Shown in pieces: positions 3,205-52,140 of a stretch of DNA of 64,000 nucleotides (the stretch's first letter is position 1; the number at the start of each line of letters is the position of its first letter). The notes below the pieces were generated by a model. That model was not told where the DNA came from. It did no database searches and saw only the letters and a list, made by a program, of their open reading frames with translations. The stretch is from Paenibacillus albicereus (lineage in GTDB: Bacteria; Bacillota; Bacilli; Paenibacillales; Paenibacillaceae). The stretch is taken from assembly GCF_012676905.1 (NCBI RefSeq), contig NZ_CP051428.1:4399001-4463000 (forward strand), read 5' to 3'. The position numbers and the translations under genes are program-made.

Positions 3205-3768
3205 GATCGAGTCGGGACTTCCTTCATGCGGCGTGCCGGACTCGAAGAAGCTCGACGACGGGGTCGAGACTTCCTTCATACGGCGTGCCGGGCTCGCAGG
3301 AGCACGACGACGGGGTCGGGACTTCCTTCATGCGGCGTGCCGGGCTCGCAGGAGCGCGACGACGGGGTCGGGACTTCCTTCATGCGGCGTGCCGGGCTCG
3401 ATGGAGCTCGACGACGGGGTCGAGACTTCCTTCATGCGGCGTGCCGGATTCGACGGAGCGCGACGAAGGGGTCGGGACTTCCTTCGTGCGGCGTGCCGGG
3501 CTCACAGGAGCGCGACGAAGGGGTCGGGACTTCCTTCATGCGGCAAGCCGGGCTCGATGGAGCTCGACGACGGGGTCGGGACTTCCGTCGTGCGGCGTGC
3601 CGGGCTCGCAGGAGCACGACGACGGGGTCGGGGCTTCCTTCATGCGACGTGCCGGGCTCGATGGAGCGCGACGACGGGGTCGGGACTTCCTTCGTGCGGC
3701 GTGCCGGGCTCGCAGGAGCGCGACGACGGGGTCGGGACTTCCTTCGTGCGGCGTGCCGGACTCCCCTC
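3205..3768. repeat. 52-bp tandem repeat array, family 1 (11 copies)
   Basis: The marker ACTTCCTTC recurs at 3217, 3269, 3321, 3373, 3425, 3477, 3529, 3581, 3633, 3685 and 3737, always 52 bp apart; the last copy is truncated. Each unit holds two mini-hairpins: GCTC-N4-GAGC, where the loop varies (GCAG, GATG, ACAG) while the arms hold, and CGAC-N6-GTCG. Because 52 is not a multiple of three, the long open frames across the array cycle through three frames and are not genes. The array fills the spacer between the importer binding-protein terminator and the deacetylase gene. Confidence 0.93.
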
Positions 3769-3782
3769 CCCTGCCGCAGCGC

Positions 3783-3825
3783 AAAAAGCCCTGACGAGCC
3801 GGGTCCTCCCGGCGTCAGGGCCTTG
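3783..3825 (-). terminator. Intrinsic terminator after the binding-protein gene
   Basis: Read on the minus strand, GCCCTGACG pairs with CGTCAGGGC around a GC-rich inner loop (CCGGGAGGACCCGG), followed directly by TTTTT. It sits about 30 nt after the stop of the solute-binding-protein gene, closing the importer operon. Confidence 0.85.
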
Positions 3826-3850
3826 CTTCCTCTCCACGAGTCGATGCGGA

Positions 3851-5269
3851 TTACTTCGCGACGGTCTTGTTGTAGACGGCGATCTTGTCCGTGATCTGCT
3901 TGGCGGCGCCGTCCAGCGCGGCCTTGGCGTCCTTCTTGCCGGTGAACGCCTCCTCGATCGCGCCTTCGACGAGCTGGCGCGCTTCCGGGAACACGCCCAT
4001 GACGGCGCCTTGGCTGGCCGTGCTCGGCTTGGAGGCGTGCAGCTGGTCGACAGCCGTCTGGAACTGCGGGTACTTGACGAGGTTGTCCTTGACCGCCTGC
4101 TCGTCGTACGCCTTGGTCGTAATCGGGAAATACCCTGTGTTGATATGCCACTGAGCCTGCGTCGCCGGCTCGGCCAGGTACTTGATGAAGGCCCACGCCG
4201 CCTGCTGCTCCTCGGCCGGCTTGTTGTTCAGCACCCACAGGCTCGCGCCGCCGACGACGACTCCGCCCTCGGTATCGGCGGACGGACGCGGCAGGAACGC
4301 CGTGCCGACCTCGAACTTGCCGGCCGCGCCGTCGACGATGCCGCGCAGGCCCGCCGTGGAATCCAGCGTCATCGCCACTTGGCCGGCGAGGAACGCCTTT
4401 TTCGTGTCGTCGGTCTTGCGGCCGAGGTTGAGCGCGGTCTTGGCGTCGACGAGCCCTTTCCACCACTCCAGCGTCTTCACCGCCGCCTCCTGGTTCACGA
4501 GCGATTCGGTGGCGGCGCTGTCGCGGCCGTTGCCGTTGTTGACGAGCTCCTTGCCCTGGGCGGCGAGCAGCTGCTCCATGAACCAGCCGTAGATGGCGAA
4601 CGAAGCGCCGGTCACGCCGTCCTTGGTGAGCGCCTTCGCGGCGTCGGCGACTTCCTGGTAGGTGGCCGGAGGCTTTTCCGGATCGAGCCCGGCCGCCTTG
4701 AACAGGTCCTTGTTGTAGTACAGGATCGGGTTGGACGTGTTGAAAGGCATCGAGTACTGCTTGCCGCCGAACGTGTAGTAGCCCCGGATGTTCGGCTCCA
4801 GCGAGCCGACGTCGTAGCCTTCCGCGTCGATGAACTGCTGCACCGGCGTCACCGCGCCGGAGTCGATCATGAAGCGGGAGCCGATCTCGTACACCTGGAT
4901 GAGCGACGGGCCGGACTTGGCGTCCATCGACGCCTTCATCTTGTTGAGGCTCTCGTCGTACGTGCCCTGATACACCGCCTCGACCTGCACATCCGGCTGG
5001 GACGAGTTGAAGCCGCTGACGAGCGCGTCCGCGGCCTTGCCGAGCTCGCCGCTCATCGAGTGCCACCAGACGACCTTCACCGGCTGTTTGGCCGGCTCGC
5101 TCGAAGCTTCGCCTCCGGCCGGGGACTCGGACGGCGAGGCGGTCGCGCTCGGGGCGGACGAAGCCGCGCCTCCGCTCGTGTTGTCCGGATTGCCCGCGCA
5201 GGCGGACAGAGGCAGGATCAGCATCGCCGCCGCGGCCGGCAGCACCCATTTCCAATTGCGGATGACCAT
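3851..5269 (-). CDS. ABC transporter extracellular solute-binding lipoprotein (sugar type)
   Basis: A 472-residue family 1 (UgpB/MalE-like) binding protein. The signal sequence MVIRNWKWVLPAAAAML ends in the lipobox LSAC (Cys24), followed by a Ser/Ala/Pro-rich linker and a start to the domain (KVVWWHSMSGELGKAADAL) typical of the carbohydrate-binding class. Later landmarks include ILYYNKDLFKAAGLDPEKPP and FIKYLAEPATQAQW, both usual in this family. GGGAGAG precedes the ATG. It is the last gene of the importer operon, 235 nt after the second permease gene; in most such operons the binding protein comes first. The substrate cannot be read from sequence; a CcpA site at the operon promoter supports a carbohydrate. 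Confidence 0.92.
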   Translation of the reverse strand: MVIRNWKWVLPAAAAMLILPLSACAGNPDNTSGGAASSAPSATASPSESPAGGEASSEPAKQPVKVVWWHSMSGELGKAADALVSGFNSSQPDVQVEAVYQGTYDESLNKMKASMDAKSGPSLIQVYEIGSRFMIDSGAVTPVQQFIDAEGYDVGSLEPNIRGYYTFGGKQYSMPFNTSNPILYYNKDLFKAAGLDPEKPPATYQEVADAAKALTKDGVTGASFAIYGWFMEQLLAAQGKELVNNGNGRDSAATESLVNQEAAVKTLEWWKGLVDAKTALNLGRKTDDTKKAFLAGQVAMTLDSTAGLRGIVDGAAGKFEVGTAFLPRPSADTEGGVVVGGASLWVLNNKPAEEQQAAWAFIKYLAEPATQAQWHINTGYFPITTKAYDEQAVKDNLVKYPQFQTAVDQLHASKPSTASQGAVMGVFPEARQLVEGAIEEAFTGKKDAKAALDGAAKQITDKIAVYNKTVAK

Positions 5270-5480
5270 GTGTGCAATCTCTCCCTTTTTCGTTGAAATG
5301 ATCGGCTGGCAATGACGCTATGGCAAGCCCCGAGGGGCGGACGCCTGCAAAAGGCTCCACGCTGCACGGCGCGGTTCGAGGGCTGCGCGAGTCCCGCCGG
5401 GAAGGCGGCGGCGGACGGCATGCTCGTGCTTGACGCGGTTCAAGGGGCTGCTCCAGGCTGCTCCCCTGTAGGAAGACGGC

Positions 5481-5499
5481 CGCGGCATATCCTGCCGCG
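5481..5499. other. Stem-loop between permease and binding-protein genes
   Basis: CGCGGCA-TATCC-TGCCGCG forms a perfect 7-bp stem just after the second permease stop. It lacks a T run. In binding-protein operons such hairpins often act as 3'-end stabilisers; that role is inference here. The remaining spacer to the binding-protein gene (to 5269) shows no gene. Confidence 0.45.
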
Positions 5500-5504
5500 C
5501 TTGC

Positions 5505-6395
5505 TCAGCCCTTCACCGCTCCGGCGGTGATGCCGCGCACGAGCGGACGCAGGCCGAGCGCGAGCAGCACCAGCGACGGCACGAGCACGAGCGCGACGCC
5601 GCACAGCACGAGGTTCCAGCTCGTCATCTCCTCGAACTGCAGCATCGCGATGCCGATCTGCACCGTGCGCATCGCGTCGCTGCTCGTGACGAGCAGCGGC
5701 CATAGGTACATGTTCCAGCCGTTCAGGAACACGTACACGCCGAGCGAGGCGGCGGCCGGACCGGAGAGCGGCAGCACGACGGAGAAGAAATGCCGCAGAT
5801 GGCCGCAGCCGTCGATGCGCGCCGCCTCGAACAGCTCGCGCGGCAGCTGGAGGAAGAACTGCCGGAGCAGGAACACGCCGAACGCCGACGCCGCGAACGG
5901 GACGATCAGGCCCGGGAACGTATCGAGCCAGCCCCAGCTTTTGACCGTGAGATAGTTGGGGATGATCGTCACCTCCCACGGAATCATCATCGTGCTGATG
6001 AACAGCGCGAACCAGAAGCGGCTGCCGGCGAAGCGCACGTAGACGAACGCGTACGCGGCAAGCGCCGCCGACAGCACCTGCAGGACGGTGACGGCGCTCG
6101 CGAGCAGGAAGCTGTTGGCGATGAAGCCGAAGATCGGCACCGTCTCGATCGCCTGCCGCAGGCTGGACGTGTCCAGCCCGGACGGCAGCAGACGCGGCGG
6201 GTACATCGACGCCTCCGCCGGCGTCATGAAAATCTGCGCCAGCAGGTAGAGCAGCGGCGCGACGGTGAGCATCGCGAGCGCGGCGGTCAGGACGAAGCGC
6301 AGCGCGGAGGCGGCATAGCGGCGGAACTCGGCCGATGGAGCGGCGCTGCCGGCACGTGCCGGCCGCTTGACGGGAGAAGGAGACACGGCGCTCAT
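5505..6395 (-). CDS. Carbohydrate ABC transporter permease (MalG/UgpE type)
   Basis: A 296-residue inner-membrane permease with six predicted helices. The EAA loop that docks the ATPase reads EAARIDGCGHLRHFFSVVLP, and FLNGWNMYLWPLLV follows, as in the MalG family. The ATG overlaps the stop of the upstream permease gene (ATGA), which fixes the start and implies translational coupling. Residues 1-30 are a Pro/Ala/Ser-rich cytoplasmic tail. No ATPase gene is in the operon; a shared MsmX-type ATPase encoded elsewhere is the usual solution in Bacillota. Confidence 0.93.
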   Translation of the reverse strand: MSAVSPSPVKRPARAGSAAPSAEFRRYAASALRFVLTAALAMLTVAPLLYLLAQIFMTPAEASMYPPRLLPSGLDTSSLRQAIETVPIFGFIANSFLLASAVTVLQVLSAALAAYAFVYVRFAGSRFWFALFISTMMIPWEVTIIPNYLTVKSWGWLDTFPGLIVPFAASAFGVFLLRQFFLQLPRELFEAARIDGCGHLRHFFSVVLPLSGPAAASLGVYVFLNGWNMYLWPLLVTSSDAMRTVQIGIAMLQFEEMTSWNLVLCGVALVLVPSLVLLALGLRPLVRGITAGAVKG

Positions 6396-7582
6396 TGGTA
6401 ATGCACCTTCTTTCCGAGGACGAGGAACTGGACGAGCGTCAGCAGCAGCATGATCGCGAACAGCACGATCGCCAGCGCGCTGCCCGTGCCGAACTGGTAG
6501 TTGACGAACGCCTCGCGGTAGATGGAATAGACGAGCACGTCGGTCGACCCCGCAGGTCCGCCCTTGGTCAGGATGTGGATCTGTCCGAACGACTGGAACG
6601 CGCTCATGACCGACACGACCGCGAGGAAAAAGAGCGTCGGCGACAGCAGCGGCAGCTTGACCGACACGAACGTGCGCCATCCGGATGCTCCGTCGATGCG
6701 GGTGCTGTCCAGCACGTCGCCGTCCAGTCCCTGGATCGCCGCCAGCAGCAGCACGAACGGGAAGCCCGAGTTCATCCACACGGTCATGAGCGAGACGGAA
6801 CCGAGCGCGCTGCCGGGATCGGTCAGCCACTGCACGGGATCGAGGCCGAGCTGCAGCAGCAAGTAGTTGAGCATGCCGAGCGACGGATGATAGAGGATCA
6901 TCCAGATGATGGAGGCCGTGCTGACGGACATCGCGAGCGGCAGCGAGAACAGGAAGCGCAGCGCGCTTCGCCCCCGCCCGGCCGAGTGGACGAGACTGGC
7001 GCAGAGCAGGCCGAGCGCGAGGCCGGCCGGCACGGTCAGCAAGGTGAACTGGAGCGTGACGAGCAGGCTGTTCCAGAACGCGGACGACTGCAGCATGCCG
7101 GTATAGTTGTCCCAGCCCGCGTAGGCGGCGACGCGGCCGCGCGGATCGGTCAGCTGGAAGCTGAGATAGATGGAGCGGAGCATCGGGTAGAAAAGGAATA
7201 CGGCGAACACGGCCAGCGACGGCGCGAGGAAAGCATAGCCGAGCGCCTGCTCGCGCCAGCGGCGGAGCCGGGCGGTGCGCGCTGCGGCGCGCGGGCCGGC
7301 CGCGCTTGCGGCGACGCCGGGGGCGGATGCGCCGGGCGTGTCGCGGAGCTCGGACGGGCCTGCGGCGCTTGCGGCGACGCCGGGGGCGGATGCGCCGGAC
7401 GTGTCGCGGAGCTCGGACGGGCCTGCGGCGCTTGCGCCGCCGAGCGTGGAGGCGCTGGACGTCGCGAGAGGGCTGGATGCGTCGGATGGCGTGCGGAGCC
7501 CGGATGCGTCTGGGACGCTTGCGGCGGCTCCGGGGCCGGTCCGGTGCTGCGGCCGGGAGGGATCAACGGGAGAGCTGCTCAT
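6392..7582 (-). CDS. Carbohydrate ABC transporter permease (MalF/UgpA type) with repeat-rich N-terminal tail
   Basis: A 396-residue permease. The membrane part starts near residue 112 (LGYAFLAPSLAVFAVFLFYP) and the EAA loop is DSTRIDGASGWRTFVSVKLP. Family members usually have about 290-310 residues. The excess is an N-terminal tail of about 110 residues rich in Ala/Ser/Pro/Gly, containing a 21-residue unit (core GPSELRDT-GASAPGVAAS, 63 bp) in two full copies plus remnants. The tail is probably cytoplasmic and disordered. The ribosome binding site at the ATG is weak (GGTGG), so translation could begin further in and the tail might not all be made. First gene of the importer operon. Confidence 0.87.
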   Translation of the reverse strand: MSSSPVDPSRPQHRTGPGAAASVPDASGLRTPSDASSPLATSSASTLGGASAAGPSELRDTSGASAPGVAASAAGPSELRDTPGASAPGVAASAAGPRAAARTARLRRWREQALGYAFLAPSLAVFAVFLFYPMLRSIYLSFQLTDPRGRVAAYAGWDNYTGMLQSSAFWNSLLVTLQFTLLTVPAGLALGLLCASLVHSAGRGRSALRFLFSLPLAMSVSTASIIWMILYHPSLGMLNYLLLQLGLDPVQWLTDPGSALGSVSLMTVWMNSGFPFVLLLAAIQGLDGDVLDSTRIDGASGWRTFVSVKLPLLSPTLFFLAVVSVMSAFQSFGQIHILTKGGPAGSTDVLVYSIYREAFVNYQFGTGSALAIVLFAIMLLLTLVQFLVLGKKVHYQ

Positions 7583-7681
7583 GGAAGGTTGTCCACCGCC
7601 TTTGTCGGATAGTCGGCCGTGCGGGCCGATTCTGGGCTCATATCCCCTACGTTAAGGAAGATTTGTTATCCCTTTGTCAGG

Positions 7682-7717
7682 ATATTATGAAGATAAAAAA
7701 ATATGTCAGCGCTTTCA
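7682..7717 (-). promoter_or_regulatory. Importer promoter with overlapping CcpA (cre) site
   Basis: On the minus strand CTGACA (-35, 7704-7709) and TAATAT (-10, 7682-7687) are 16 bp apart. The -35 hexamer lies inside TGAAAGCGCTGACA (7704-7717), which matches the catabolite-response-element consensus TGWNANCGNTNWCA at every position. A cre over the -35 predicts repression by CcpA/HPr-Ser-P when preferred sugars are present. The start codon is about 95 nt downstream. Confidence 0.75.
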
Positions 7718-7799
7718 TCAAGTGATGAAACAATTCTCCAGCGTGTTGCCGCAGAGCACTAGCAGCCGGATTAAGCGACAGCCTTCAGGATGAGACGAA

Positions 7800-7846
7800 G
7801 AAAAAAAGCGTTCCTCTACCTGATTCAGGTAGAGGAACGCTTTTAA
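7800..7846. terminator. Bidirectional intrinsic terminator at the end of the purine operon
   Basis: Two perfect 16-nt arms (GCGTTCCTCTACCTGA and its complement) flank a single base, with a T run of seven on the minus strand and TTTT on the plus strand. It lies about 265 nt after the purD stop, beyond the family-2 repeats, so those repeats would be part of the purine operon's 3' untranslated region. Confidence 0.92.
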
Positions 7847-7861
7847 AACGTATGTTGAGGC

Positions 7862-8066
7862 GGAAGGTGCCGAATCCAAGGCAGAAATATGCCTTGGATT
7901 CGGTTCTCCAGCCTGATTGCGCCCGATCCAAGACAGAAATGTGCCTTGGATTCGGCTCTCCAGCCTGATTGCAGTCGATCCACGGCGGAAATATGCCTTG
8001 GGTTCGGCTCTCCCGCATGATTGCGCCCGATCCACGGCAGAAATATGCCTTGGATTCGACTTTCCC
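7862..8066. repeat. 52-bp tandem repeat array, family 2 (4 copies) in the purine operon 3' UTR
   Basis: CAGAAAT or a close variant recurs at 7882, 7934, 7986 and 8038, exactly 52 bp apart. Each unit centres on a hairpin: in copy 1, CGAATCCAAGGCA and TGCCTTGGATTCG form a perfect 13-bp stem around GAAATA. Copies 2-4 keep most of the stem, with substitutions that are partly G-U wobbles on the minus-strand RNA. The array is transcribed with purD before the terminator. Confidence 0.9.
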
Positions 8067-8104
8067 CCTCCGGGGGGCAAGCGCGGCGGAGGGCGATCGG
8101 GCGG

Positions 8105-11290: not shown

Positions 11291-11342
11291 ACCGCTTGCG
11301 AAGGAAAGACTTCACGCGCGGCTGTCAGGATAACCCGGCGCG

Positions 11343-11787
11343 CTCAAGGTAGTCCGGACTCCTTCTTGCGGCGCATCCGGGTCATCCCGGCGCGCTCAAG
11401 GTAGTCCGGACTCCTTCATACAGCGCTTCCGGGTCATCCCGGCGCGCTCAAGGAAGTCCGGACCCCTTCTTGCGGCGCATCCGGGGCATCCCGGCGCGCT
11501 CAAGTCAGTCCGGACCCCTTCATACAGCGCTTCCGGGTCATCCCGACGCGCTCAAGGTAGTCCGGACCCCTTCGCGCGGCGCATCCGGGTCATCCCGGCA
11601 CGCTCAAGGTAGTCCGGACCCCTTCTTGCGGCGCATCCGGGTCATCCCGGCGCGCTCAAGTCAGTCCGGACCCCTTCATACGGCACTTCCGGGTCATCCC
11701 GGCGCGCTCAAGGTAGTCCGGACTCCTTCATGCGGCGCATCCGGGTCATCCCGGCGCGCTCAAGGCAGTCCGGACCCCTTCGCGGAC
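11343..11787. repeat. 52-bp tandem repeat array, family 3 (9 copies) in the purN-purH spacer
   Basis: CTCAAG recurs at 11343, 11395, 11447, 11499, 11551, 11603, 11655, 11707 and 11759, always 52 bp apart; the last unit runs up to the purN stop. Each unit contains a palindrome AGTCCGGACT (or AGTCCGGACC) and a hairpin CCGGG-TCAT-CCCGG. The sequence is unrelated to families 1 and 2. It would be transcribed as intercistronic RNA of the purine operon. Confidence 0.93.
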
Positions 11788-18648: not shown

Positions 18649-18730
18649 CGTGGCAACTCCTCATGAGTGGATTGATTATCAAGGCGGTTGAATGTTCGTG
18701 GGGCTGACTGTTTGTCGGGTGAACGGCTGC

Positions 18731-18858
18731 GAGCAGGGACGAGCGGCTAGGCGGGCAGGGCTGAGCGGCTAGGCGGTCCAGGGACGAGCGGCTAGGCGGG
18801 CCAGGGACGAGCGGCTAGGCGGGCAGGGACGAGCGGCTAGGCGGGCAGGGACGAGTAG
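18731..18858. repeat. 22-23-bp tandem repeats upstream of purS
   Basis: GAGCGGCTAGGCGG with GGGACGA or GGGCTGA recurs at 18741, 18763, 18786, 18809 and 18831, with a final decayed copy at 18853. Spacing is 22-23 bp. Non-coding. Confidence 0.85.
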
Positions 18859-19080: not shown

Positions 19081-19740
19081 CGACCAGCTCGATTTTTTCG
19101 ACTTAAAGCCGTCTTGACCCACTCCCCGAAGCCCAGTAACTCGATTTTTTCGACTTAACGCCTGCCGGACCCACACCTCGAAGCCCAGTAACTCGATTTT
19201 TTCGACTTAACGCCTGCCGGTTGCACACCTCGAAGCCCAGTAACTCGATTTTTTCGACTTAATGCCTGCCGATTGCACACCTCGAAGCCCAGTAACTCGA
19301 TTTTTTCGACTTAACGCCTGCCGGATGCACACCCCGAAGCCCAGTAACTCGATTATTTCGACTTAACGCCTGCCGGACCCACACCTTGAAGCCCAGTAAC
19401 TCGATTTTCTCGACTTAATCCCTGCCGGATGCACTCCCCGAAGCCTAGTAACTCGATTTTTTCGACTTAATGCCTGCCGGATGCACTCCTCGTAGCCCCG
19501 TAACTCGATTTTTTCGACTTAATGCCTGCCGGATGCACACCCCAAAGCCCAGTAACTCGATTTTTTCGACTTAATCCCTGCCGGATGCACACCTCGAAGC
19601 CCAGTAACTCGATTTTTTCGACTTAACGCCTGCCGGATGCACTCCCCGAAGCCCAGTAACTCGATTTTTTCGACTTAACGCCTGCCGGATGCACACCCCG
19701 AAGCCCAGTAACTCGATTTTCTCGACTTAACACCTGCCGG
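19081..19740. repeat. 52-bp tandem repeat array, family 4 (13 copies) in the purC-purS spacer
   Basis: The motif CTCGATTTTTTCGACTTAA recurs with CTCGA at 19088, 19140, 19192, 19244, 19296, 19348, 19400, 19452, 19504, 19556, 19608, 19660 and 19712, strictly 52 bp apart. On the minus strand each unit folds as UAA, a G-G mismatch, UCGA, an AAAA loop, UCGA, UUA. Units differ mainly in the linker CCTGCCGG-N-GCAC-CC-GAAGCC. It runs straight into family 5. Confidence 0.94.
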
Positions 19741-19754
19741 TTGCACGTACTGTC

Positions 19755-20045
19755 GATCCCGAGCTGCTCGGTTTTTCCGCGCATTTCCCTGTCCGACCGC
19801 CTGTCGGTACCGAGCTGCTCGGTTTTTCCGCGCAACTCTCCTGTCCGACCGCCTGTCAATCCCGAGCTGCTCGGTTTTTCGACGCAACTCTCCTGTCCGA
19901 CCGCCTGTCGGTACCGAGCTGCTCGGTTTTTCCGCGCAACTCTCCTGTCCGACCGCCAGTCGATCCCGAGCTGCTCGGTTTTTCCGTGCAACTCTCCTGC
20001 CCGACCGCCTGTCGGTGCCGTGCTGCTCGATTTTTCCGCGCAACG
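19755..20045. repeat. 52-bp tandem repeat array, family 5 (6 copies) next to purC
   Basis: The core (CGAGCTGCTCGGTTTTTCC, or TGCTGCTCG in the last copy) occurs near 19761, 19812, 19864, 19916, 19968 and 20020, with one step of 51 bp and the others 52. On the minus strand GAGUUGC pairs with GCAGCUC (one U-G), enclosing CGG-AAAAA-CCG. It resembles the family at 51.2-52.1 kb (CGAGTAACTCGGTTTTTCCGCG) more than its neighbour family 4. It ends just after the purC stop. Confidence 0.92.
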
Positions 20046-24490: not shown

Positions 24491-24581
24491 CGCGGAACGG
24501 CGCGCAAGCCCGACGCCGCAACATGCGAGCCAGGCGGCAGCGCCGCTCTGCCCGAAGCGCCATGACGGGGCTCCGGTTCTT

Positions 24582-24647
24582 CCCGTAGTCCGGCGATTCC
24601 GGTCGCCGGGTAGAAACGTTCGGGCCGATTCCCGAAGATATACGAGG
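24582..24647 (-). promoter_or_regulatory. Purine riboswitch aptamer (guanine class) in the purE leader
   Basis: Read on the minus strand: P1 (CTCGTA paired with TACGGG), J1/2 TATATCTT, P2 CGGG/CCCG with loop AATCGGC, the invariant J2/3 GTTTCTACC, P3 CGGCGA/TCGCCG with loop CCGGAA, and J3/1 GACTA. The pyrimidine that pairs with the ligand is C (position 74 of the xpt aptamer), predicting guanine or hypoxanthine rather than adenine. Ligand binding should favour the downstream terminator and shut off the operon. Confidence 0.95.
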
Positions 24648-24753
24648 AGTATGCGATTATCGGACAAGTCGGACGCCGCTCGCTCCGCTTGCCCCATTCC
24701 AAGATTCGACATCGGCGAGGCAAGCCAAACCCGGCTGCCCGCTTCGCCTTCCT

Positions 24754-34521: not shown

Positions 34522-34704
34522 AACGAACCTCACAAGCGCTATTCGTGCGGAATCGGGCCATTGAGTCTTCTAACGAAACCCACAAGCGCTATGAGCCGAT
34601 AAATCACCGAAACGCCCCCCTCCGCGCCTGAATAACGCTTATCCGTTTCGTTAAATAAAGTTGAACGTGGGTTTTGAACGAAATAGCGTCGCTCAGGTTC
34701 GTTA
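34522..34704. repeat. Family-6 repeats: two direct and two inverted copies about 51 bp apart
   Basis: TAACGAACC-CAC-AAGCGCTATTCGT (from 34523) and TAACGAAACCCACAAGCGCTAT (from 34573) are 50 bp apart. On the opposite strand TAACGAAACG-ATAAGCG (ending 34653) and TAACGAACC-GAGCGACGCTATTTCGTT (ending 34704) are 51 bp apart. The block is thus an inverted pair of near-52-bp repeats. ACGAA/TTCGT mini-stems lie in the AACGAACC-type copies. Confidence 0.65.
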
Positions 34705-35842: not shown

Positions 35843-37720
35843 TTACAAGATCGAACGGCTGTCCGAAGAGCGGAAGAAGTCCAATGCCGACGAAGCATGA
35901 AGGTTCAGCTTCAGCCCAAGATCGAGGCTGCCGCGCTTGTGGGAAGCATAGCTTCCTTTCTGCTGCTTGCTGCTGCCTTCATGTCCGTTCACGCTGCTGC
36001 GGTCGCTATAGCTGTCATAGCTGGATTTACCTTCGAGATTCAGGTTCAGCCCGAGACCGAGGCTGCCGCGACTTTCGCCGGCGTAGCTGCTGCTACGGTC
36101 AGAGACGACGTTTTGCACGCCTTTGTCCGAAACATAGCTTGCGCTGCGGTCGTAACTCGTGCTGCTTTCGCCTTCTGCATTCAGGTTCAGCCCGAGATCG
36201 AGGCTGCCGCGGCTTTCGCGCTCGATCGAAGACTCGTTCGAGTTCGCGTAAGCGCCGGACTCCGTTCCTTTGCCGCCTTCAGCAAAGTCCTTGCCGTAGC
36301 TGTAGCCCTTCGAATCGCGGCTCCACTTCTCGTAGGAAGAAGAGCTGTCCGCGTTCAGGCCGAGATCGAAGCTGCCTTTGCTTTCGCTCTCGACCGAAGA
36401 CTCGTTCGAGCTCGCAGTTGTGGCAGACTGCGTTCCTTTGCCGCCTTCAGCAAGACCCTTGCCGTAGCTGTAGCCCTTCGAATCGCGGCTCCACTTCTCA
36501 TAGGAAGAAGAGCTGTCCGCGTTCAGGCCCAGATCGAGGCTGCCGTCGCTCGACTTCGACGTTTGAGTGGCCGTTTCCGTCATGCGACGGTCGCCGTTCT
36601 CGCCGGTCTCCGTTTCGGACGCGTAGCTCGTCATCGTCTCCTGCTCGCTGGAACTGTCCGCGTTCAGACCGAGATCGAGGCTGCCGTCGCTCGACTTCGA
36701 CGTTTGAGTGGCCGTTTCCGTCATGCGACGGTCGCCGTTCTCGCCGGTCTCCGTTTCGGACGCGTAGCTCGTCATCGTCTCCTGCTCGCTGGAACTGTCC
36801 GCGTTCAGACCGAGATCAAGGCTGCTGTCGCTCGACTTCGACATTTGAGCGGCCGTTTCCGTCATCTGACGAGCGCCGTTCTCGCCGGTCTCCGTTTCGG
36901 ATGCGTAACTCGTCATCGTCTCCTGCTCGCTGGAGTTGTCCGCGTTCAGGCCGAGATTGAGGCTGCTGTCGCTCGACTTCGACGTTTGAGTCGCGGCTTC
37001 CGTCATCTGGCGGGCGCCGTTCTCGCCGGTCTCCGTTTCGGACGCGTAGCTTGTCATCGTCTCCTGCTCGCTGGAGTTGTCCGCGTTCAGGTTCAGATCG
37101 AAGCTGCTGTCGCTCGACTTCGACGTTTGAGTGGCGGCTTCCGTCATCTGACGGGCGCCGTTCTCGCCGGTCTCCGTTTCGGTCGCGTAGCTCGTCATCG
37201 TCTCCTGCTCGCTGGTGCTGTCCGCGTTCAGGCCGAAATCGAGGCTGCTGTCGCTCGACTTCGACGTTTGAGTCGCGGCTTCCGTCATCTGGCGGTCGCC
37301 GTTCTCGCCGGTCTCCGTTTCGGACACGTAGCTCGATTTCGTTTCCTGCTCGCTGGAGCTGTCCGCGTTCAGGTTCAGGCCGAGGTCGAGATGGCTATCG
37401 CTCGACGTCGATGTCGTCGTCTCCGAGGCCGTCGAAGCGCGGCCGCCGTCATCCGTAGAAGAATGGCTTTGAGTCGACTCCGTGCGGCTGCTTCCGCTAA
37501 GACCGAGGTTCAGGCCGAGGCCGAAGGAGCTGTTGGAGGAAGATTGGGAGGAGTAAGAGCTCTGCTCCTGCTTCATCTCCGTTCCTTCCGAGGCATGAGC
37601 GCCTCCAGCTGCCGCCAGCGCACCGATCACGACGCTCGTCGAAAGCACCGACAGCTTTACCCAGGATGGCATCTGAACCGACTTGAACCCTTTGTTGGTC
37701 ACCGTTTGGATCGTTTTCAT
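35843..37720 (-). CDS. Secreted Ser/Thr/Glu-rich protein with LDLGLNLNADSSS repeats
   Basis: Function unrecognised. The 625-residue product starts MKTIQTVTNKGFKSVQMPSW, followed by a hydrophobic segment and a signal-peptidase site after GGAHA. The rest is repetitive: about seven units of 47 residues (141 bp), each LDLGLNADSSSEQETMTSY, then ETETGENG-R-MTE-A-TQTSKSSD. Further units are built on the same LDLGLN-ADSSSSYEKWS strand, ending with LDLGLKLNLHASS. In all, LDLGLN-type strands appear about a dozen times, spaced by acidic Ser/Thr spacers. The start has AAGGAG ten nt upstream. It follows the Pro-rich secreted gene after 55 nt. The regular short amphipathic strands suggest a surface fibre or amyloid-like matrix protein, which is speculation. 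Confidence 0.85.
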   Translation of the reverse strand: MKTIQTVTNKGFKSVQMPSWVKLSVLSTSVVIGALAAAGGAHASEGTEMKQEQSSYSSQSSSNSSFGLGLNLGLSGSSRTESTQSHSSTDDGGRASTASETTTSTSSDSHLDLGLNLNADSSSEQETKSSYVSETETGENGDRQMTEAATQTSKSSDSSLDFGLNADSTSEQETMTSYATETETGENGARQMTEAATQTSKSSDSSFDLNLNADNSSEQETMTSYASETETGENGARQMTEAATQTSKSSDSSLNLGLNADNSSEQETMTSYASETETGENGARQMTETAAQMSKSSDSSLDLGLNADSSSEQETMTSYASETETGENGDRRMTETATQTSKSSDGSLDLGLNADSSSEQETMTSYASETETGENGDRRMTETATQTSKSSDGSLDLGLNADSSSSYEKWSRDSKGYSYGKGLAEGGKGTQSATTASSNESSVESESKGSFDLGLNADSSSSYEKWSRDSKGYSYGKDFAEGGKGTESGAYANSNESSIERESRGSLDLGLNLNAEGESSTSYDRSASYVSDKGVQNVVSDRSSSYAGESRGSLGLGLNLNLEGKSSYDSYSDRSSVNGHEGSSKQQKGSYASHKRGSLDLGLKLNLHASSALDFFRSSDSRSIL

Positions 37721-41100: not shown

Positions 41101-41202
41101 GGATCGTCCGGAGCGGAAGCTCGCGACCTGCTCCCTCCCTCATCCTCTGCCGCATGGCGGAGAAGATCAGAGGACGAGAGCGGCACGAGGGCTTGCGCTC
41201 CG

Positions 41203-41276
41203 AACTTTCGTAGCCAGGTCATTTACGGTGACCGAGTAGAGACTTCCGGGCCGATCCCCGGAATTATACGAAAGTT
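41203..41276 (-). promoter_or_regulatory. Purine riboswitch aptamer (guanine class) in the pbuG leader
   Basis: P1 is a perfect 10-bp stem (AACTTTCGTA with TACGAAAGTT). Then follow J1/2 TAATT, P2 CCGGG/CCCGG with loop GATCGGC, J2/3 GTCTCTAC, P3 GGTCA/TGACC with loop CCGTAAA, and J3/1 ending GCTA. The ligand-pairing base is C, so guanine/hypoxanthine specificity is predicted. The conserved J2/3 GTTTCTAC has one substitution (GTC). Confidence 0.93.
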
Positions 41277-41303
41277 GCGTTGAATTTCGATCAGAACGTA
41301 ACT

Positions 41304-46014: not shown

Positions 46015-46024
46015 TTCAAGCATC

Positions 46025-46086: not shown

Positions 46087-47628
46087 TCATTCCCACTCGA
46101 TCGTCGCCGGCGGCTTGGACGTGATGTCGTAGACGACGCGGTTGACGTTGTCGACCTCGTTGACGATGCGCACGGAGATCTTCTCCAGCACGTCCCACGG
46201 GATGCGCGCCCAGTCGGCCGTCATGCCGTCGATGGACGTCACGGCGCGGATGCCGACGGTGTAGGAGTACGTGCGGGCGTCGCCCATGACGCCGACGCTG
46301 CGCATGCCCGGCAGCGCCGTGAAGTACTGCCAGATCTCGCGGTCGAGGCCGGCCTTGGCGATCTCGTCGCGCAGGATCGCGTCGGACTCGCGCACGATCT
46401 CCAGCTTCTCGTCCGTCACTTCGCCCAGCACGCGGATCGCGAGGCCGGGACCCGGGAACGGCTGGCGCCAGACGATGGCGTCGGGCAGGCCGCATTCGGA
46501 GCCGACCTTGCGGACCTCGTCCTTGAACAGCGCGCTCAGCGGCTCGACGAGCTTGAACGTGATGTCCTCCGGCAGGCCACCGACGTTGTGATGGGACTTG
46601 ATCGTCTGCGCGGTCGCGGTGCCGCTCTCGACGATGTCGGTGTACAGCGTGCCCTGGGCGAGGAATTCGAAGTTCGCGAACTTGGCGGACTCCTCCTGGA
46701 ACACGTAGATGAACTCGTTGCCGATGATCTTGCGCTTCTGCTCCGGATCGGAGACGCCGCGCAGCTTGCCGAGGAAGCGCTCGCTGGCGTCGACCTTGAT
46801 GACCTCCATGCCGAACTTGCCGACGAACGTCTCCATGACGCTCTCCGCCTCGCCCTTGCGCAGCAGGCCGTGGTCGATGAACATGCACGTCAGGCGATCG
46901 CCGATCGCCTTGTGGACGAGCATGGCGACGACGGAGGAGTCGACGCCTCCCGACAGCGCGCACAGCACGCGGCCGGTGTCGCCGACCTTCTCGCGGATGT
47001 CGCGGATCGCGTCGTCGATGAACGTCTCCATGCTCCAGTCGCCTTCGCAGCCGCATACCGTATAAAGGAAGTTGCGGATCATGTCGTTGCCGTAGACGGA
47101 GTGGCGCACCTCCGGGTGGAACTGCACGGCGTAGAAATTCTTGTCCGGATGGCTCATGGCCGCGATCGGCGCATGTTCCGTTCCCGCATCCAAGCGGAAG
47201 CCCTCCGGCATCTCCACGACGAGATCGGTATGGCTCATCCATACCGTCTGGCGGTTCTCCAGGCCGAGCGCGAGCGCCGCGCCCTCGGCGAACGTCACGT
47301 CCGCGCGGCCGTACTCGCGCTTGCCGGCGCGCTGCACCTTGCCCTTGAGCTGATGGCTCATCAGCTGCATGCCGTAGCAGATGCCGAAGATCGGCAGGCC
47401 GAGCTCGTAGATCTCCGGATCGACCATCGGCGAGTTTTCTTCATAGACGCTGGCCGGCCCGCCGGAGAAGACGATCCCCTTCGGCGCCAGCTCGCGGATC
47501 TTGGAAGCCGGAGTGTTGTACGGCAGCAGCTCGCTGTAGACGCCGAGATCCCGGATGCGCCGAGCAATCAGCTGGTTGTACTGTCCTCCGAAATCGAGAA
47601 CCACGATCATTTCATTAGGCTTGTTCAC
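46087..47628 (-). CDS. guaA: GMP synthase (glutamine-hydrolysing)
   Basis: Aminates XMP to GMP. The GTG at 47628, with GGGAGGT six nt upstream, gives 513 residues, as in B. subtilis. The glutaminase domain has the Cys nucleophile in [10 protein letters not shown] and the His-Glu pair in [11 protein letters not shown]. The PP-loop is [15 protein letters not shown], and the dimerisation end reads [16 protein letters not shown]. It complements the purine operon and pbuG within the window. Confidence 0.98.
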
Positions 47629-47657
47629 GCCCGTACCTCCCTCAGTCAATTGGACTC

Positions 47658-47687
47658 ATTCTATCAAAGCGGCTTCCGGCCAGTCAA
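47658..47687 (-). promoter_or_regulatory. guaA promoter
   Basis: Minus-strand TTGACT (47682-47687) and TAGAAT (47658-47663) are 18 bp apart. The leader would be only about 20-25 nt, too short for a riboswitch, so guaA seems not to be controlled like purE and pbuG. Confidence 0.72.
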
Positions 47688-47775
47688 GGCAGGAAGCCGC
47701 GCGGCTGCGCGGCCGGACGGCCGCGGACGGGAGCGGGAGATGGACGGCCGGAGCCGAAGACACGGGCCGAGCCGG

Positions 47776-48020
47776 GAGCGGGCGGCGGGAGCCGGAGACG
47801 CCGGCTGAGCCGGGGGCGCAGCCGGAGGTGGCCGGAGACGTCGGCTGGGCCGGTGGCGCAGCCGGAGGTGGCCGGAGACGTCGGCTGGGCCGGTGGCGCA
47901 GCCGGAGGGCGCGGACGGAGCGGGGCCGGCGCGAAGCGCAGCGCTACGCGCGGGTTTCCGCGCGTAGGAGGCTTGGCCGCGCGCCCAAGCGGCGGCTACG
48001 CGCGGGGTTTCCGCGCGCAA
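47776..48020. repeat. 40-bp direct repeats and a two-copy 52-bp hairpin repeat (family 8) after the transglutaminase gene
   Basis: A 40-bp unit (GCGCAGCCGGAGGTGGCCGG plus 20 more) starts at 47816 and 47856, with a third start at 47896 and a related stretch before. Then CTACGCGCGG-GTTT-CCGCGCGTAG at 47944 (perfect 10-bp stem) recurs at 47996, exactly 52 bp on, as a slightly decayed copy. These fill the 400-nt gap between the transglutaminase stop and guaA. Confidence 0.85.
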
Positions 48021-48037
48021 AAGCTTCGCGGCGCGCC

Positions 48038-51000
48038 TCAGGCGCGGTCGCGGCGGACGAGCGCCATCGCGGCGGCCAGCTCCGCCGCCGCGGGGCCGCG
48101 CCAAGTCGCAGGCGCCGCGAAGCGCGCGGCCTCGGCCCAGGCCGCGAGCCGGCGCAGCGCAGCGGCGGCCGCCGGCGCAAGCCGCGGCGCGAGCGCCTCG
48201 GCGCGCTCGGCCGGGCCGCCGCCGAGCAGCGGCGCCGCGCCTTGCCGGCGCTCGAGCGCGCGCAGCTGCGCCTCCGCCGCGGCAAGCAGCGCGGCCCGCT
48301 GCGCGGCGCGGCGGCTGCGGCGCTCGCCGCCTGCCGCCGCCAGCGCGTAGCGGCGCAGCGCCAGCGCGAGGCGCAGCCGCGTGCGCAGCCCCGGCGAGGC
48401 CAGCGCAGCCGCGAGCGCGCCCAGCGCGGCGACGGCCGCGGCAGGGCCGGGCTGCGCCAGCGCACGCGCGAGCTCGGCCGCACGGCCGGCCGCAGCGCCT
48501 GCGGCCTCGCGCAGCCGCGAGCTTGCGGCTGCGTCTTGCTGCGGCGCCGGGCTCGGCGCAGCCGCGGCGCCCTCGGCGTCGGCGGCAGCCGGAATCTCCG
48601 GCTGCTGCGCGGCGCCCGCCGCGTACCCCGGCGTCGGGTCGATGGCGACCCACCCGGCGCCGGGAAAATAAACCTCCACCCAAGCATGCGCGTCCAGCCC
48701 GCTGACCCGGTACAGCTCTCCCCCGGCTCCGGCCGCGGCGCCTCCAAGCGCCGCACGGGCTTCCGCAGGAGCTTTTCCCGACGCCAGCGCTTCGCCTGGA
48801 GCGAAGCCCTTCACCCACCGGGCCGGAATGCCGACCGACCGCAGCAGCACCGCCATCGCCGTGGAGAAATGCACGCAGTAGCCGACCTTCCGCTCGAACA
48901 GGAACTGGTCGACCAGATCCTGCCCCGGCGCGGGAGCGGCGGTTTCCGTCAGCGAGTACCGATAGTTCGCCTTCAAGTAGTCCCTCACCGCGGCGACCTG
49001 CCCGTACCGGTCTTCCTTGCCGGCGGTCGCCGCCACGGCGAGCTCCTTCACCCGCTGCGGCAGCGAGGCGGGCAGCTGCAGCGCCGCTTTCAGCTCAAGC
49101 TCGAGCTGCCCGTCCGTGGTGTCCGCCGTCGGCTCCGCCTGCGCTCCGGAGGCCGCCGCTCCCGCCGCAGCGCCAAGTCTCATCTGCTCCTCCGTCGGCC
49201 GGACGAGCTCCGACAAGACCGTGTAGCCCAGCGCGCCGCCGGCCGCTTGGGGCAAGTAGACGGCTCCGCCGCCGGTTTCGCTCAGGTAGGACGTCCATTC
49301 TGCGGACGTGTCCGCTCCCGGCGATCGGGCCGACAGAATCGATGCGGCCCGTCCGGCTGCGGGCAGCGGCATCCCTTCCTCCAGACGGGGCAGCCAGACC
49401 GATTGCCGGATCGTTTCCGCGACTTCGGGCTCCATGCGCTGACGTTCTTTGCTCGGACGACCTGTGTCGGCCGCTCCCGAACTCGCCGGCTCTGCGTCCG
49501 CCCTCGCCGAGCTTTCTGACTCCGTGCCCGTCCGCTCGGCGCCATCCCCGGCCACGACGGCTTTCCCCGATGCTGCCGCTGCCGGGCCGACGGCACGCGA
49601 GACCAGCTCGGCGCCTTCCTCCCTCCAGCCTTGGCCGGTGTAGACGGTTTTCGCTTCCATTCTCCAATAAAGAGGCTCGGGGGACACCGCCCAGAACAGC
49701 GTGCGCCCGGACTGCCGCAGCGGCGCTCCGAGAAGCGTGTCGTCCCGGCCGTAGCCCGTTTCGGCCGCCGTGCCGGCCGTTCCGCCTTCTGCAGCCGGCG
49801 TCCCGCCCTCCCCGCTGAAGATCGGGGAGCGGCGGACCGTTCCGGCCCCGTCCTGCGAAGCGGAGGCGCGAATCGCCTGCTGCGCTTTCAGCGCCCAGCC
49901 GGCGGGCTGCTCCGCGGCAGGCTTGCCGGCCGACAGCCCGGCCGCGCCGAGCGCAAGCAGAGCGGCGGCTCCTCCGCTCGCCGCCCACCAGCGCCAAGGC
50001 GGCATCTCCGCCCCATCGGGAAGCGCGGATGCCGTTCCGGCGGTCCATGCATCCGACTGGCGCCGCTTCAGCCGATGCAGGGAGAGCAGCGCGCCCAGCA
50101 GCACGCCTTCGGCCGCAGCGCGCGCCAGATTCGGCATCGTGTCGATTCCGAACCATTCGCTGAGCAGCCATAGATACCCCGCCGTCAGCCCCAGCAGGCC
50201 GATGCCCCACTGTCGGATCCAGACCAGCGTCTGCAGCGCCGAGAGCAGGATCGACAGCCCGAGCAGCAGGCAAAAGGCCTGTCCGGCACCCGACATTGCG
50301 GGAGGACCGCCCTCCAGCAGCAGACCGGCGTCCGCCGCAAGCTGCTTCGGCAGCCGGACGAAGCCGGACCAGCCGCTCTCGTCCAAGCCGATCCAGCCCG
50401 CGCCCGCCGTCACGACGGCGAGCCGGAGCAGCAGCGAAGCCCAGCCGGGCAGCAGCAAGACGCCGGCAAGCAGCAGCAAGCCGGCTATGGCGGCCAGCTC
50501 GCCGATGCGGTACGCGCCGTTCCACTGCGGCAGCCTCGAGAGCGGCAGCAGCCACTCCGCCAGCAAGCCGAGCAGCAGGAGGCTGGAGGCGGTCCGAAGC
50601 GGCCAGCGGAGCAAGCCGCCCGCTTGCTCGAGGCGCGCACGGCGGCCGGCAGGCGACGGCCGGTCGGCCGAACCGGCGACGACAGCCGCTCCATGGCTGC
50701 CCGCTGCCTTAGAGCGGCTTCCTGGCCGAGACGGCGAGACGCCTCCGCTTGCCGCGCTTCTGCCTGCCCAGCTGCCGGCTGCCTTTCCCCTGCTGGCTGC
50801 CTTTCCCCCGCCCGCCGCGCCACCGCTTGCCATCCCGCCGATCCTTCCCGTGTCTCCGCTTGCCGCACCTGGGATGGAAGCACCCGTTCCCGTTTGGTCC
50901 CAAGCTGTTGCGCCTCCTATTGCCCATCTGCCAGCCGCGCCTCCGCCCCCCGTTCTAACGGCCTTTCCCGCCTGTCCCGAACCGGCCTGCATCCAGGCCG

Positions 51001-51052
51001 ATCCTTGCAGCACCAGCCCAGCCGAGACCTTGTTCGAGCCGCTGTCCTTCAT
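48038..51052 (-). CDS. TgpA-like transglutaminase membrane protein
   Basis: A 1004-residue membrane protein. Residues 1-120 form a Gly/Ala/Ser-rich cytoplasmic lead. Six to seven helices follow (from ASSLLLLGLLAEWLLPL to about residue 350). A large external part contains the transglutaminase-like core: Cys in VGYCVHFSTAMAVLLRSVG, His in DAHAWVEVYF and Asp in WVAIDPTPG. A further helix and a cytoplasmic Ala/Arg-rich tail end the protein. GGAGGAG is seven nt upstream of the ATG. The gene belongs with DUF58 and moxR, which often occur together in bacteria; a role in envelope protein handling is suggested by that context. A 1.1-kb repeat array separates it from the DUF58 gene. Confidence 0.88.
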   Translation of the reverse strand: MKDSGSNKVSAGLVLQGSAWMQAGSGQAGKAVRTGGGGAAGRWAIGGATAWDQTGTGASIPGAASGDTGRIGGMASGGAAGGGKAASRGKAAGSWAGRSAASGGVSPSRPGSRSKAAGSHGAAVVAGSADRPSPAGRRARLEQAGGLLRWPLRTASSLLLLGLLAEWLLPLSRLPQWNGAYRIGELAAIAGLLLLAGVLLLPGWASLLLRLAVVTAGAGWIGLDESGWSGFVRLPKQLAADAGLLLEGGPPAMSGAGQAFCLLLGLSILLSALQTLVWIRQWGIGLLGLTAGYLWLLSEWFGIDTMPNLARAAAEGVLLGALLSLHRLKRRQSDAWTAGTASALPDGAEMPPWRWWAASGGAAALLALGAAGLSAGKPAAEQPAGWALKAQQAIRASASQDGAGTVRRSPIFSGEGGTPAAEGGTAGTAAETGYGRDDTLLGAPLRQSGRTLFWAVSPEPLYWRMEAKTVYTGQGWREEGAELVSRAVGPAAAASGKAVVAGDGAERTGTESESSARADAEPASSGAADTGRPSKERQRMEPEVAETIRQSVWLPRLEEGMPLPAAGRAASILSARSPGADTSAEWTSYLSETGGGAVYLPQAAGGALGYTVLSELVRPTEEQMRLGAAAGAAASGAQAEPTADTTDGQLELELKAALQLPASLPQRVKELAVAATAGKEDRYGQVAAVRDYLKANYRYSLTETAAPAPGQDLVDQFLFERKVGYCVHFSTAMAVLLRSVGIPARWVKGFAPGEALASGKAPAEARAALGGAAAGAGGELYRVSGLDAHAWVEVYFPGAGWVAIDPTPGYAAGAAQQPEIPAAADAEGAAAAPSPAPQQDAAASSRLREAAGAAAGRAAELARALAQPGPAAAVAALGALAAALASPGLRTRLRLALALRRYALAAAGGERRSRRAAQRAALLAAAEAQLRALERRQGAAPLLGGGPAERAEALAPRLAPAAAAALRRLAAWAEAARFAAPATWRGPAAAELAAAMALVRRDRA

Positions 51053-51149
51053 GCCGTTTCTCCTCCATTCGTTGCGCACGGCGCCGGCCGGAGCTCATGC
51101 AACGGTTCGGCGCCGCGCCATTGCAGCTCCGCGACCGCACTGCTCCTCT

Positions 51150-52140
51150 CGCTCCGACGCTCCCACACCCGAGTAACTCGAATTTTCCGCGTTACTTCTC
51201 TCGTTTCGCCGCTCCCGCACCCGAGCAACTCGGTTTTTCCGCGTTGCTCCCTCGCTCCGACGCTCCTACGCCCGAGTAACTCGGTTTTTCCGCGTTACTC
51301 CTCTCGCTCCGACGCTCCCGCGCCCGAGTAACTCGGTTTTTCCGCGTTACTCCTCTCGTTTCGCTGCTCCCACGCCCGAGTAACTCGATTTTTCCGCATT
51401 ACTCCTCTCGCTCCGACGCTCCTACGCCCGAGTAACTCGGTTTTTCCGTGTTGCTCCTCTCGCTCCGACGCTCCCGCGCCCGAGTAACTCGGTTTTTCCG
51501 CGTTACTCCTCTCGTTTCGCTGCTCCCACGCCCGAGTAACTCGATTTTTCCGCATTACTCCTCTCGCTCCGACGCTCCTACGCCCGAGTAACTCGGTTTT
51601 TCCGTGTTGCTCCTCTCGCTCCGACGCTCCCGCACCCTAGTAACTCGGTTTTTCCGCGCTACTCCCTCGCTCCGACGCTCTCGCACCCGAGTAACTCGGT
51701 TTTTCCGCGTTACTCCTCTCGTTTCGCCGCTCCCGCACCCGAGTAACTCGGTTTTTCCGCGTTACTCCTCTCGTTTCGCCGCTCTCGCACCCGAGTAACT
51801 CGGTTTTCCGCGTTGCTCCTCTCGTTTCGCCGCTCCCGCACCCGAGTAACTCGATTTTTCCGCGTTACTCCTCTCGTTTCGCCGCTCCCGCACCCGAGTA
51901 ACTCGATTTTTCCGCGTTGCTCCCTCGCTCCGACGCTCCCACGAGCCGAGTAACTCGATTTTCCCGCCTTACTCCTCTCGCTCCGACGCTCTCGCACCCG
52001 AGTAACTCGGTTTTTCAGCGCTACTCCCTCGCTCCGACGCTCTCGCACTCGAGTAACTCGGTTTTTCCGCGTTGCTCCCTCGCTCCGACGCTCTCGCACC
52101 CGAGTAACTCGGTTTTTCCGCGCTACTCCTCTCGCGCTGC
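51150..52140. repeat. 52-bp tandem repeat array, family 7 (about 19 copies)
   Basis: CGAGTAACTCGGTTTTTCCG recurs with GAG at 51171, 51223, 51274, 51326, 51378, 51430, 51482, 51534 and so on to 52102; steps are 52 bp with a few 51. Each unit forms a hairpin in which GAGTAAC pairs with GTTACTC around CGG-AAAAA-CCG (minus strand). The copy at 51223 has GAGCAAC with GTTGCTC, a matched double change, and others carry single changes leaving G-U wobbles. The array fills the spacer between the DUF58 and transglutaminase genes. Open frames crossing it are not genes. Confidence 0.95.

What the first reader, a model, noticed from the sequence alone, without database searches (positions are those of the whole stretch)
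3205..52140. Seven or more unrelated intergenic tandem arrays share one period: 52 bp
Arrays at 3205-3768, 7862-8066, 11343-11787, 19081-19740, 19755-20045, 47944-48020 and 51150-52140 have different sequences but unit lengths of 52 bp (rarely 51); another at 34522-34704 is near 51. The counted positions hold over up to 13 consecutive units. 52 bp is close to five turns of B-DNA, so hairpins or bound proteins would fall on the same face. A single mechanism (a polymerase, a recombinase or a nucleoid or RNA-binding protein with fixed spacing) seems to impose the length while the sequence drifts. I know of no described repeat class with this property.
Basis: seen in the sequence. Interest (0 to 1): 0.85.

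Follow-up and report, generated by a model that had tools for sequence, protein, structure and literature searches.

The report
Helix-phased 52-bp palindrome arrays in Paenibacillus
Between many genes of this Paenibacillus chromosome sit head-to-tail rows of DNA palindromes placed about five turns of the double helix apart, most of them pointing with the direction of DNA copying; the constant 52-base spacing was already published, but the palindrome layout, the whole-turn spacing and the direction rule give its unknown purpose something concrete to test.

Summary
Observation mostly right: six of the eight listed arrays are clean 52-bp tandem repeats, a seventh is two hairpins 52 bp apart, the eighth is not above chance. 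The claim that no such class is described is wrong: Subirana & Messeguer (PMC8161180) describe 52-nt, constant-length, sequence-variable repeats in Bacillus and Paenibacillus, function unknown. The arrays are not all unrelated: in this genome most fall into three families, each a conserved dyad core of 23-27 bp plus a fast-drifting linker.

What I add: (1) across Paenibacillus species, arrays at the same pur-operon junctions have mostly unrelated sequences but mostly the same pitch; (2) recurrent intervals between cores are 51-52, 62 and 72-73 bp, steps of about 10.3 bp, so 123-, 113- and 164-bp repeats are 51+72, 51+62 and 51+51+62; (3) the core centre is A-rich on the leading strand in 42 of 46 T and P arrays here, 17 of 18 where flanking genes converge or diverge; (4) 16 of 27 published Bacillus consensus repeats carry a significant dyad.

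Best reading, inferred: polar platforms of palindromes on one face of duplex DNA for a cooperatively binding protein. An RNA-hairpin role and neutral, slippage-driven satellites remain open.

The parts
3211..3763 (-). Family G array, 52 bp x 10.6, dyad core about 23 bp (TGAAGG..GTCCGGAC..CCTTCA type); 11 cores
   Evidence: TRF; core scan
7874..8065 (+). Family P array, 52 bp x 3.7, core ATCCAAGGCAGAAATATGCCTTGGAT (10-bp arms); one of the two P arrays whose A-rich centre is not on the leading strand
   Evidence: TRF
11334..11781 (+). Family G array, 52 bp x 8.6, between two minus-strand genes (pur operon by my reading)
   Evidence: TRF; genes; core scan
19088..19746 (+). Family T array (TAACTCGATTTTTTCGACTTA sub-type), 52 bp x 12.7, between purS and purC
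   Evidence: TRF; gene names from reading the translation, recalled
19750..20044 (+). Family T array (CCGAGCTGCTCGGTTTTTCCGCG sub-type), 52 bp x 5.7, same junction; one P. pasadenensis array there is 73% alike
   Evidence: TRF
51143..52148 (+). Family T array, 52 bp x 19.4, core GAGTAACTCGGTTTTTCCGCGTTACTC (compensatory variant of GAGTTGC..GCAACTC)
   Evidence: TRF
47944..48020 (.). Two related hairpins (CTACGCGCGGGTTTCCGCGCGTAG type) 52 bp apart; perhaps a degenerate two-unit remnant
18729..18855 (.). 22-bp tandem array (5.7 copies) beside the T arrays; possibly the two-turn size class, not tested
   Evidence: TRF

Best explanation
These are members of the published Firmicutes class of 52-nt tandem repeats. 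Shown, for the samples examined: each unit is a dyad core of about 25 bp plus a linker of about 26 bp. Cores vary less than linkers, and stems change by compensation. Cores occur in arrays and rarely alone. The core-to-core interval is held at 51-52 bp, and in some species alternates with 62 or 72-73 bp, that is about 5, 6 or 7 turns of B-DNA. Arrays are rare in divergent gaps and lie between co-directional or convergent genes. In families T and P the A-rich core centre lies on the leading strand. Inferred: the spacing is kept because a protein that recognises the species' own dyad binds cooperatively along one face of the duplex, building a polar filament or looped platform read by, or protecting against, the replication machinery or transcription-driven supercoiling. 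Tandem duplication and conversion homogenise each array; linkers drift freely in sequence but not in length.
For: Pitch: family T 248 of 263 same-strand core intervals <=260 bp are 51-52; family G 124 of 124 are 51-53. Core/linker mismatch between neighbouring units: T 0.080/0.213, G 0.077/0.181, P 0.124/0.270; solo cores 4 of 33, 2 of 18 and 0 of 17 groups. Other intervals: 123=51+72, 113=51+62, 164=51+51+62; listed core positions give 51 x33 and 72-73 x18 of 60 in G337, 51 x17 and 71-72 x10 of 29 in G362, 51 x6, 61-62 x6 and 113-115 x47 of 62 in G375; 51.5, 62 and 72.3 fit one repeat of 10.30-10.35 bp. Same junction, mostly unrelated sequence, mostly same pitch. Polarity: T 27 of 29, P 15 of 17, 17 of 18 in convergent or divergent contexts against 61:50 for control dyads in convergent gaps, Fisher p=0.0013. 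Divergent context 2 of 56 arrays against 17% of intergenic gaps, p=0.0023; family P convergent 9 of 13, p=2.9e-5. Dyads in 16 of 27 published Bacillus consensus repeats. p-values are not corrected for the number of tests.
Against: No protein was identified. Sense-strand G.T mismatches exceed A.C in core arms (79:25 in 22 arrays from 18 loci picked for clear dyads; 203:106 on the leading strand in family T, 97:24 of it at one stem position), an RNA-like or single-strand-DNA signature that a duplex model does not predict; family P shows the reverse (19:29). The six- and seven-turn intervals rest on few core families (two each that look independent; in one of them 73 was seen once), the rule was found after the fact, and arrays of other periods exist in the same loci (8-10, 19, 22, 26, 36, 38, 46, 64, 65, 86, 95, 183, 219, 237 and others); a 95-bp interval recurs at L220. 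Family G has no A-run centre and no clear polarity. Genes are themselves mostly leading-strand (641 of 916), so co-directional arrays alone would look biased.
Confidence: 0.45

Rival explanations
1. RNA-level element: arrays are transcribed 3'-UTR or intercistronic strings of A-loop hairpins that stabilise mRNA or bind a protein; the strand bias reflects transcription.
For: In the assumed pur operon span 25 of 27 arrays with at least two dyads are A-centred on the sense strand, none T-centred, 2 equal (11 more of 38 had fewer than two dyads and were dropped); control dyads 168:146. Sense-strand G.T over A.C 79:25. Leading-strand RNA folds slightly better than its complement after composition control in family T, p=0.048. 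B. coagulans 52-nt repeats are reported transcribed (PMC8161180; PMC8625621).
Against: Family P in convergent contexts follows replication in 9 of 9, 4 of them nearer the lagging-strand gene's end. Nothing about RNA hairpins asks for 51/62/72-nt spacing. Families G (p=0.104) and P (p=0.455) show no significant strand difference in folding after composition control.
Confidence: 0.25
2. Neutral satellites: palindromes on the lagging-strand template cause slippage, arrays expand and homogenise, and the 52-bp length is inherited from an ancestral unit; no function.
For: Linkers of related arrays keep traces of common descent (nearest-linker identity median 0.54-0.68); P. pasadenensis has a diverged array at the same junction; the strand bias fits hairpins on the lagging-strand template.
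Against: Neutral drift should scatter unit length once linkers are near saturation (mean linker identity 0.32-0.39), yet modal spacing stays 51-52 in three families here and is the commonest period in other species. Cores are conserved over linkers within arrays.
Confidence: 0.22
3. REP/BIME-like mobile palindromes spread by a REP-associated tyrosine transposase.
For: Extragenic palindromes, hundreds of copies, found between co-directional and at convergent genes.
Against: No Y1_Tnp (PF01797) in either array-rich genome, G000 or G004; 6 of 21 genomes searched have it. Solo cores are rare.
Confidence: 0.03

Closest known systems
52-nt tandem repeats of Bacillus and other Firmicutes (Subirana & Messeguer 2021, PMC8161180)
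   Same: Unit 51-53 nt, non-coding, sequence variable between families and species, several families per genome with shared short signals, partial conservation between strains, abundant in Paenibacillus.
   Different: The main text reports no dyad architecture (it notes short sequences and their reverse in one repeat), no six- or seven-turn variants, no replication polarity; 'palindrom', 'hairpin' and 'orientation' do not occur in it (supplements not read).
REP/BIME elements with RAYT transposases (PMC3733652 passages; PMC2817692 and PMC8266576 listing only)
   Same: Extragenic palindromic repeats of 20-40 bp in high copy, sometimes in tandem.
   Different: No Y1 transposase in the two array-rich genomes, few single copies, fixed pitch, one direction along the array.
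CRISPR arrays
   Same: Palindromic repeats at regular spacing.
   Different: Linkers repeat along an array (TRF match 73-97% over whole units), so they are not unique spacers; many loci per genome.
Replication-oriented motifs such as KOPS, SRS and Chi (recalled, no call)
   Same: Skewed orientation towards the leading strand.
   Different: Those are single short motifs, not phased palindrome arrays.

Membership tests
Firmicutes 52-nt tandem repeats (PMC8161180) | Constant repeat size 51-53 nt | tested here: met
Firmicutes 52-nt tandem repeats (PMC8161180) | Variable sequence between families and species | tested here: met
   51/52-bp units at the purC junction 0.35-0.59 alike (null 99% 0.49), except 0.73 between this genome and P. 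pasadenensis
Firmicutes 52-nt tandem repeats (PMC8161180) | Non-coding | tested here: met
   all six window arrays lie between called genes (own gene caller)
Firmicutes 52-nt tandem repeats (PMC8161180) | At least four repeats | tested here: met
   five of six window arrays; 7874-8065 has 3.7 by TRF and four cores
Firmicutes 52-nt tandem repeats (PMC8161180) | Host in Firmicutes | tested here: met
   PurC 93% identical to P. pasadenensis
REP/BIME | RAYT (Y1_Tnp) in the genome | tested here: not met
   0 matches in G000 and G004
REP/BIME | Many single copies | tested here: not met
   6 solos of 68 groups, in partly targeted samples
REP/BIME | GTAG or CGTC tag at one end | not tested
   no formal scan
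CRISPR | Unique spacers between repeats | tested here: not met
   linker mismatch between neighbours only 0.18-0.27
CRISPR | Adjacent cas genes | not tested
   not searched

The most novel reading that the evidence does not exclude
Firmicutes chromosomes carry a class of replication-polar, helically phased palindrome arrays: a species-specific dyad, co-evolving with its own recognition protein, is repeated every whole number of helical turns (5, sometimes 6 or 7) between genes, with its A-rich centre on the leading strand, forming oriented filament or loop platforms for nucleoid organisation or fork passage. Sequence is free; face of the helix and direction are not.
Probability: 0.3. Interest if true: 0.85.

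Novelty: new member of a known kind. Interest (0 to 1): 0.58.

Why it matters
The 52-nt repeats were published as enigmatic: strict length, free sequence, no known function. A dyad core, a spacing rule in helical turns and a direction rule turn that into tests: half-turn spacers should break it, the partner should bind cooperatively to phased dyads, and flipped arrays should fail. If right, this is a widespread chromosome-organising element of Firmicutes that sequence comparison alone cannot see.

Tried and rejected
RAYT mobilisation: rejected, no PF01797 in G000 or G004.

CRISPR: rejected, linkers are not unique spacers.

Sense-strand terminators: family T has a stem followed by T5 on the lagging strand, antisense to 18 of 20 co-directional gene pairs, so terminator avoidance could add to the bias; it does not explain family P.

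Strand composition alone: T arrays are more purine-rich on the leading strand (0.643) than other intergenic DNA (0.525), so background skew is not enough.

RNA strand test: mixed. Uncorrected, leading-strand RNA folds better in T (p=1.8e-5) and G (p=0.042), not in P; with composition controlled T p=0.048, G 0.104, P 0.455. G.T over A.C holds in family T, mostly at one stem position, and in other species; P is opposite; G could not be used because its inner core positions are fixed mismatches.

Known RNA families: at gathering scores Rfam finds only two purine riboswitches in the window.

A first gene caller was trained on shadow ORFs and mis-called strands; replaced.

An interval search with all similar hairpins gave off-turn values too (27, 33, 54, 68, 76, 80, 95, 106, 107, 118, 127 in other species, nearly all single sightings, 95 twice at one locus; many in this genome), so I rely on recurrent intervals.

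Literature; their listings and abstract starts show no report of helical-turn variants or replication polarity of 52-nt repeats. PMC8161180: whole main text read, supplements not; PMC6749651: part 1 of 5; PMC8625621: part 1 of 3 and passages; PMC3733652: passages. Subirana & Messeguer 2020 (J Bacteriol), cited there, was not read.

Full report
What is there. TRF gives six clean 52-bp arrays in the window, five of them with 5.7-19.4 copies and one with 3.7, and almost no indels. The other two listed places are a two-hairpin remnant (47944-48020) and nothing above chance (34522-34704). A codon-based gene caller, trained on this genome's own stretches, puts every array between genes on the minus strand. 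Three arrays at two of the junctions lie in what I read as the pur operon. The window lies at 4,399,001-4,463,000 of one 5.17-Mb contig. The closest named PurC is Paenibacillus pasadenensis, 93% (the window's own record may be left out of that list).

Not unrelated, and not undescribed. In 1.25 Mb of this chromosome (393 kb spaced, 793.5 kb array-targeted, and the window) TRF gives 71 non-coding arrays of period 49-54 with at least 2.5 copies. A core scan groups sites of three cores into 59 groups of three or more: T (GAGTTGCTCGGTTTTTCCGCGCAACTC and variants) 29, G (TGAAGGCAGTCCGGACCCCTTCA) 15 and P (ATCCAAGGCAGAAATATGCCTTGGAT) 15, from 303, 142 and 75 sites. A few arrays carry none of the three (for example L034 16400 and L064 14189, period 49). 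The class was published: constant 52 nt, variable sequence, several families per genome, mainly Bacillus, especially abundant in Paenibacillus, no known function (PMC8161180). The question of function is still open there.

Anatomy. Neighbouring units differ at 8% of core positions and 21% of linker positions in T, 8/18% in G and 12/27% in P. Stems change by compensation: T pair 10/16 is G-C in 23 arrays and A-T in 6; pair 4/22 is T-A in 21 and A-T in 6; pair 0/26 is G-C in 22 and C-G in 3, of 29. Cores are rarely alone: 6 solos in 68 groups, though most stretches were picked because they held arrays. Linkers of different arrays have drifted to 32-39% mean identity, yet the modal spacing is 51-52 in every listed T, G and P array but one, a three-core P group with 101 and 52. 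T allows 51/52 exchanges (67 of 272 intervals not modal); G is nearly strict (4 of 123); P has 11 of 56 not modal.

Across species. In 74 named pur loci with standard offset (of 80 fetched), 13 have an array just downstream of purC and 14 about 7 kb further on, roughly the place of this window's 11334-11781 array. Of the 13, nine include a 51/52-bp array or a 102-, 113- or 164-bp composite; the other four have 26, 38, 64 and 219 bp. Of the 14, twelve conform and two have 22 and 42 bp. Units of 51-52 bp at the purC junction are mostly no more alike than shuffled units (0.35-0.59; null 99th percentile 0.49), except this genome against P. pasadenensis (0.73). In 112 non-redundant loci (8 of 120 dropped as duplicates) 22 of 60 arrays judged non-coding have period 51-52; eleven more were set aside as possibly coding, seven of them with period 51.

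The turn rule. Larger periods decompose: 123 = 51+72, 113 = 51+62, 164 = 51+51+62, 102 = 2x51; the 153-bp array has dyads mostly every 51 bp. Whole-genome pattern searches list core positions: G337 60 intervals (51 x33, 72 x16, 73 x2, 123 x7, 50 and 122 once each; one 174-bp pair in the listing was not entered), G362 29 (51 x17, 72 x9, 71, 122 and 124 once each), G375 62 (51 x6, 61 x2, 62 x4, 113 x40, 114 x6, 115, 124, 175 x2), and G352, G332 and G354 mainly multiples of 51 give or take one (from the listed hits; those listings are incomplete). A further core family (P. glycanilyticus, L136) has 52 twice and 73 once. 51.5, 62 and 72.3 fit a repeat of 10.30-10.35 bp, the pitch of B-DNA. The published second size class, 20-21 nt, is two turns, as its authors note. 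I treat the rule as moderately supported: few independent core families, found after the fact, with off-turn arrays present.

Direction. The contig starts with dnaA and dnaN (recognised by eye) and GC skew changes sign between the samples at 2.37-2.39 and 2.58 Mb; I split replichores at 2.5 Mb. The A-rich core centre is on the leading strand in 27 of 29 T arrays (where the T-rich strand is the lagging one) and 15 of 17 P groups, two of which are pairs only; in some P groups the A and T counts are close. Where flanking genes converge or diverge it is 17 of 18 (P 9 of 9, T 6 of 7 convergent and 2 of 2 divergent, the last two at one locus). Control dyads in convergent gaps give 61:50, in all gaps 288:238 (Fisher against the convergent controls p=0.0013). 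Four of the nine convergent P arrays lie nearer the lagging-strand gene and still follow replication. In other species' pur operons 25 of 27 arrays with at least two dyads are A-centred on the sense strand, none T-centred, 2 equal (11 of 38 dropped for too few dyads; controls 168:146); some of these arrays are related by clade, and transcription and replication are expected to agree there, so they do not separate the two. Family G has no A-run and no clear bias.

Context. Divergent gaps hold 2 of 56 arrays against 17% of gaps (p=0.0023); P prefers convergent gaps (9 of 13, p=2.9e-5); 22 of 34 co-directional arrays lie nearer the upstream gene's 3' end (p=0.037). Genes came from my own caller, so some gaps may hide missed genes.

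Generality. Of 27 published Bacillus consensus repeats (50-54 nt, some related to each other), 16 have a dyad reached by at most 5% of 60 shuffles each. So dyad plus linker is probably a common plan of the class, not a Paenibacillus peculiarity. A-rich centres were not tested there.

Mechanism. The pitch in whole turns and the rarity of single cores point to cooperative binding on one face of duplex DNA; the direction points to replication. Against this, sense-strand G.T exceeds A.C in the arms (79:25; 203:106 in T), which suits RNA or single-stranded DNA hairpins on the lagging-strand template; P shows the opposite (19:29). A neutral account, slippage at lagging-strand hairpins with inherited unit length, explains direction and array growth but not why unit length survives near-saturation of the linkers.

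Noticed in passing
window 24566-24665 (-) and 41191-41291 (-): Two purine riboswitches, the first upstream of the minus-strand genes that I read as the pur operon.
   Followed up: no
window 18729-18855: A 22-bp tandem array (5.7 copies) beside the 52-bp arrays in the purS-purC gap; may be the published two-turn (20-21 nt) size class.
   Followed up: no
window 36185-37456 and 53642-53897: Repeats of 141/168 bp and 42 bp inside or beside long open frames, probably protein repeats (period a multiple of three).
   Followed up: no
   Followed up: partly
L135 919-1130, L209 13427-13610, G001 L070 and L079: Another repeat family (AAGCTTATGCTTACGAAG) with pitch 37-41 bp shared by several Paenibacillus species; less regular than the 52-bp class.
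   Followed up: no
G337 (P. castaneae) core hits: Counted by hand per locus (2.041 and 2.044 Mb as one), cores are 14 plus and 4 minus below 2.1 Mb, 4 plus and 11 minus above: a replichore-like switch; the origin in that scaffold was not located and the listing is incomplete.
   Followed up: partly
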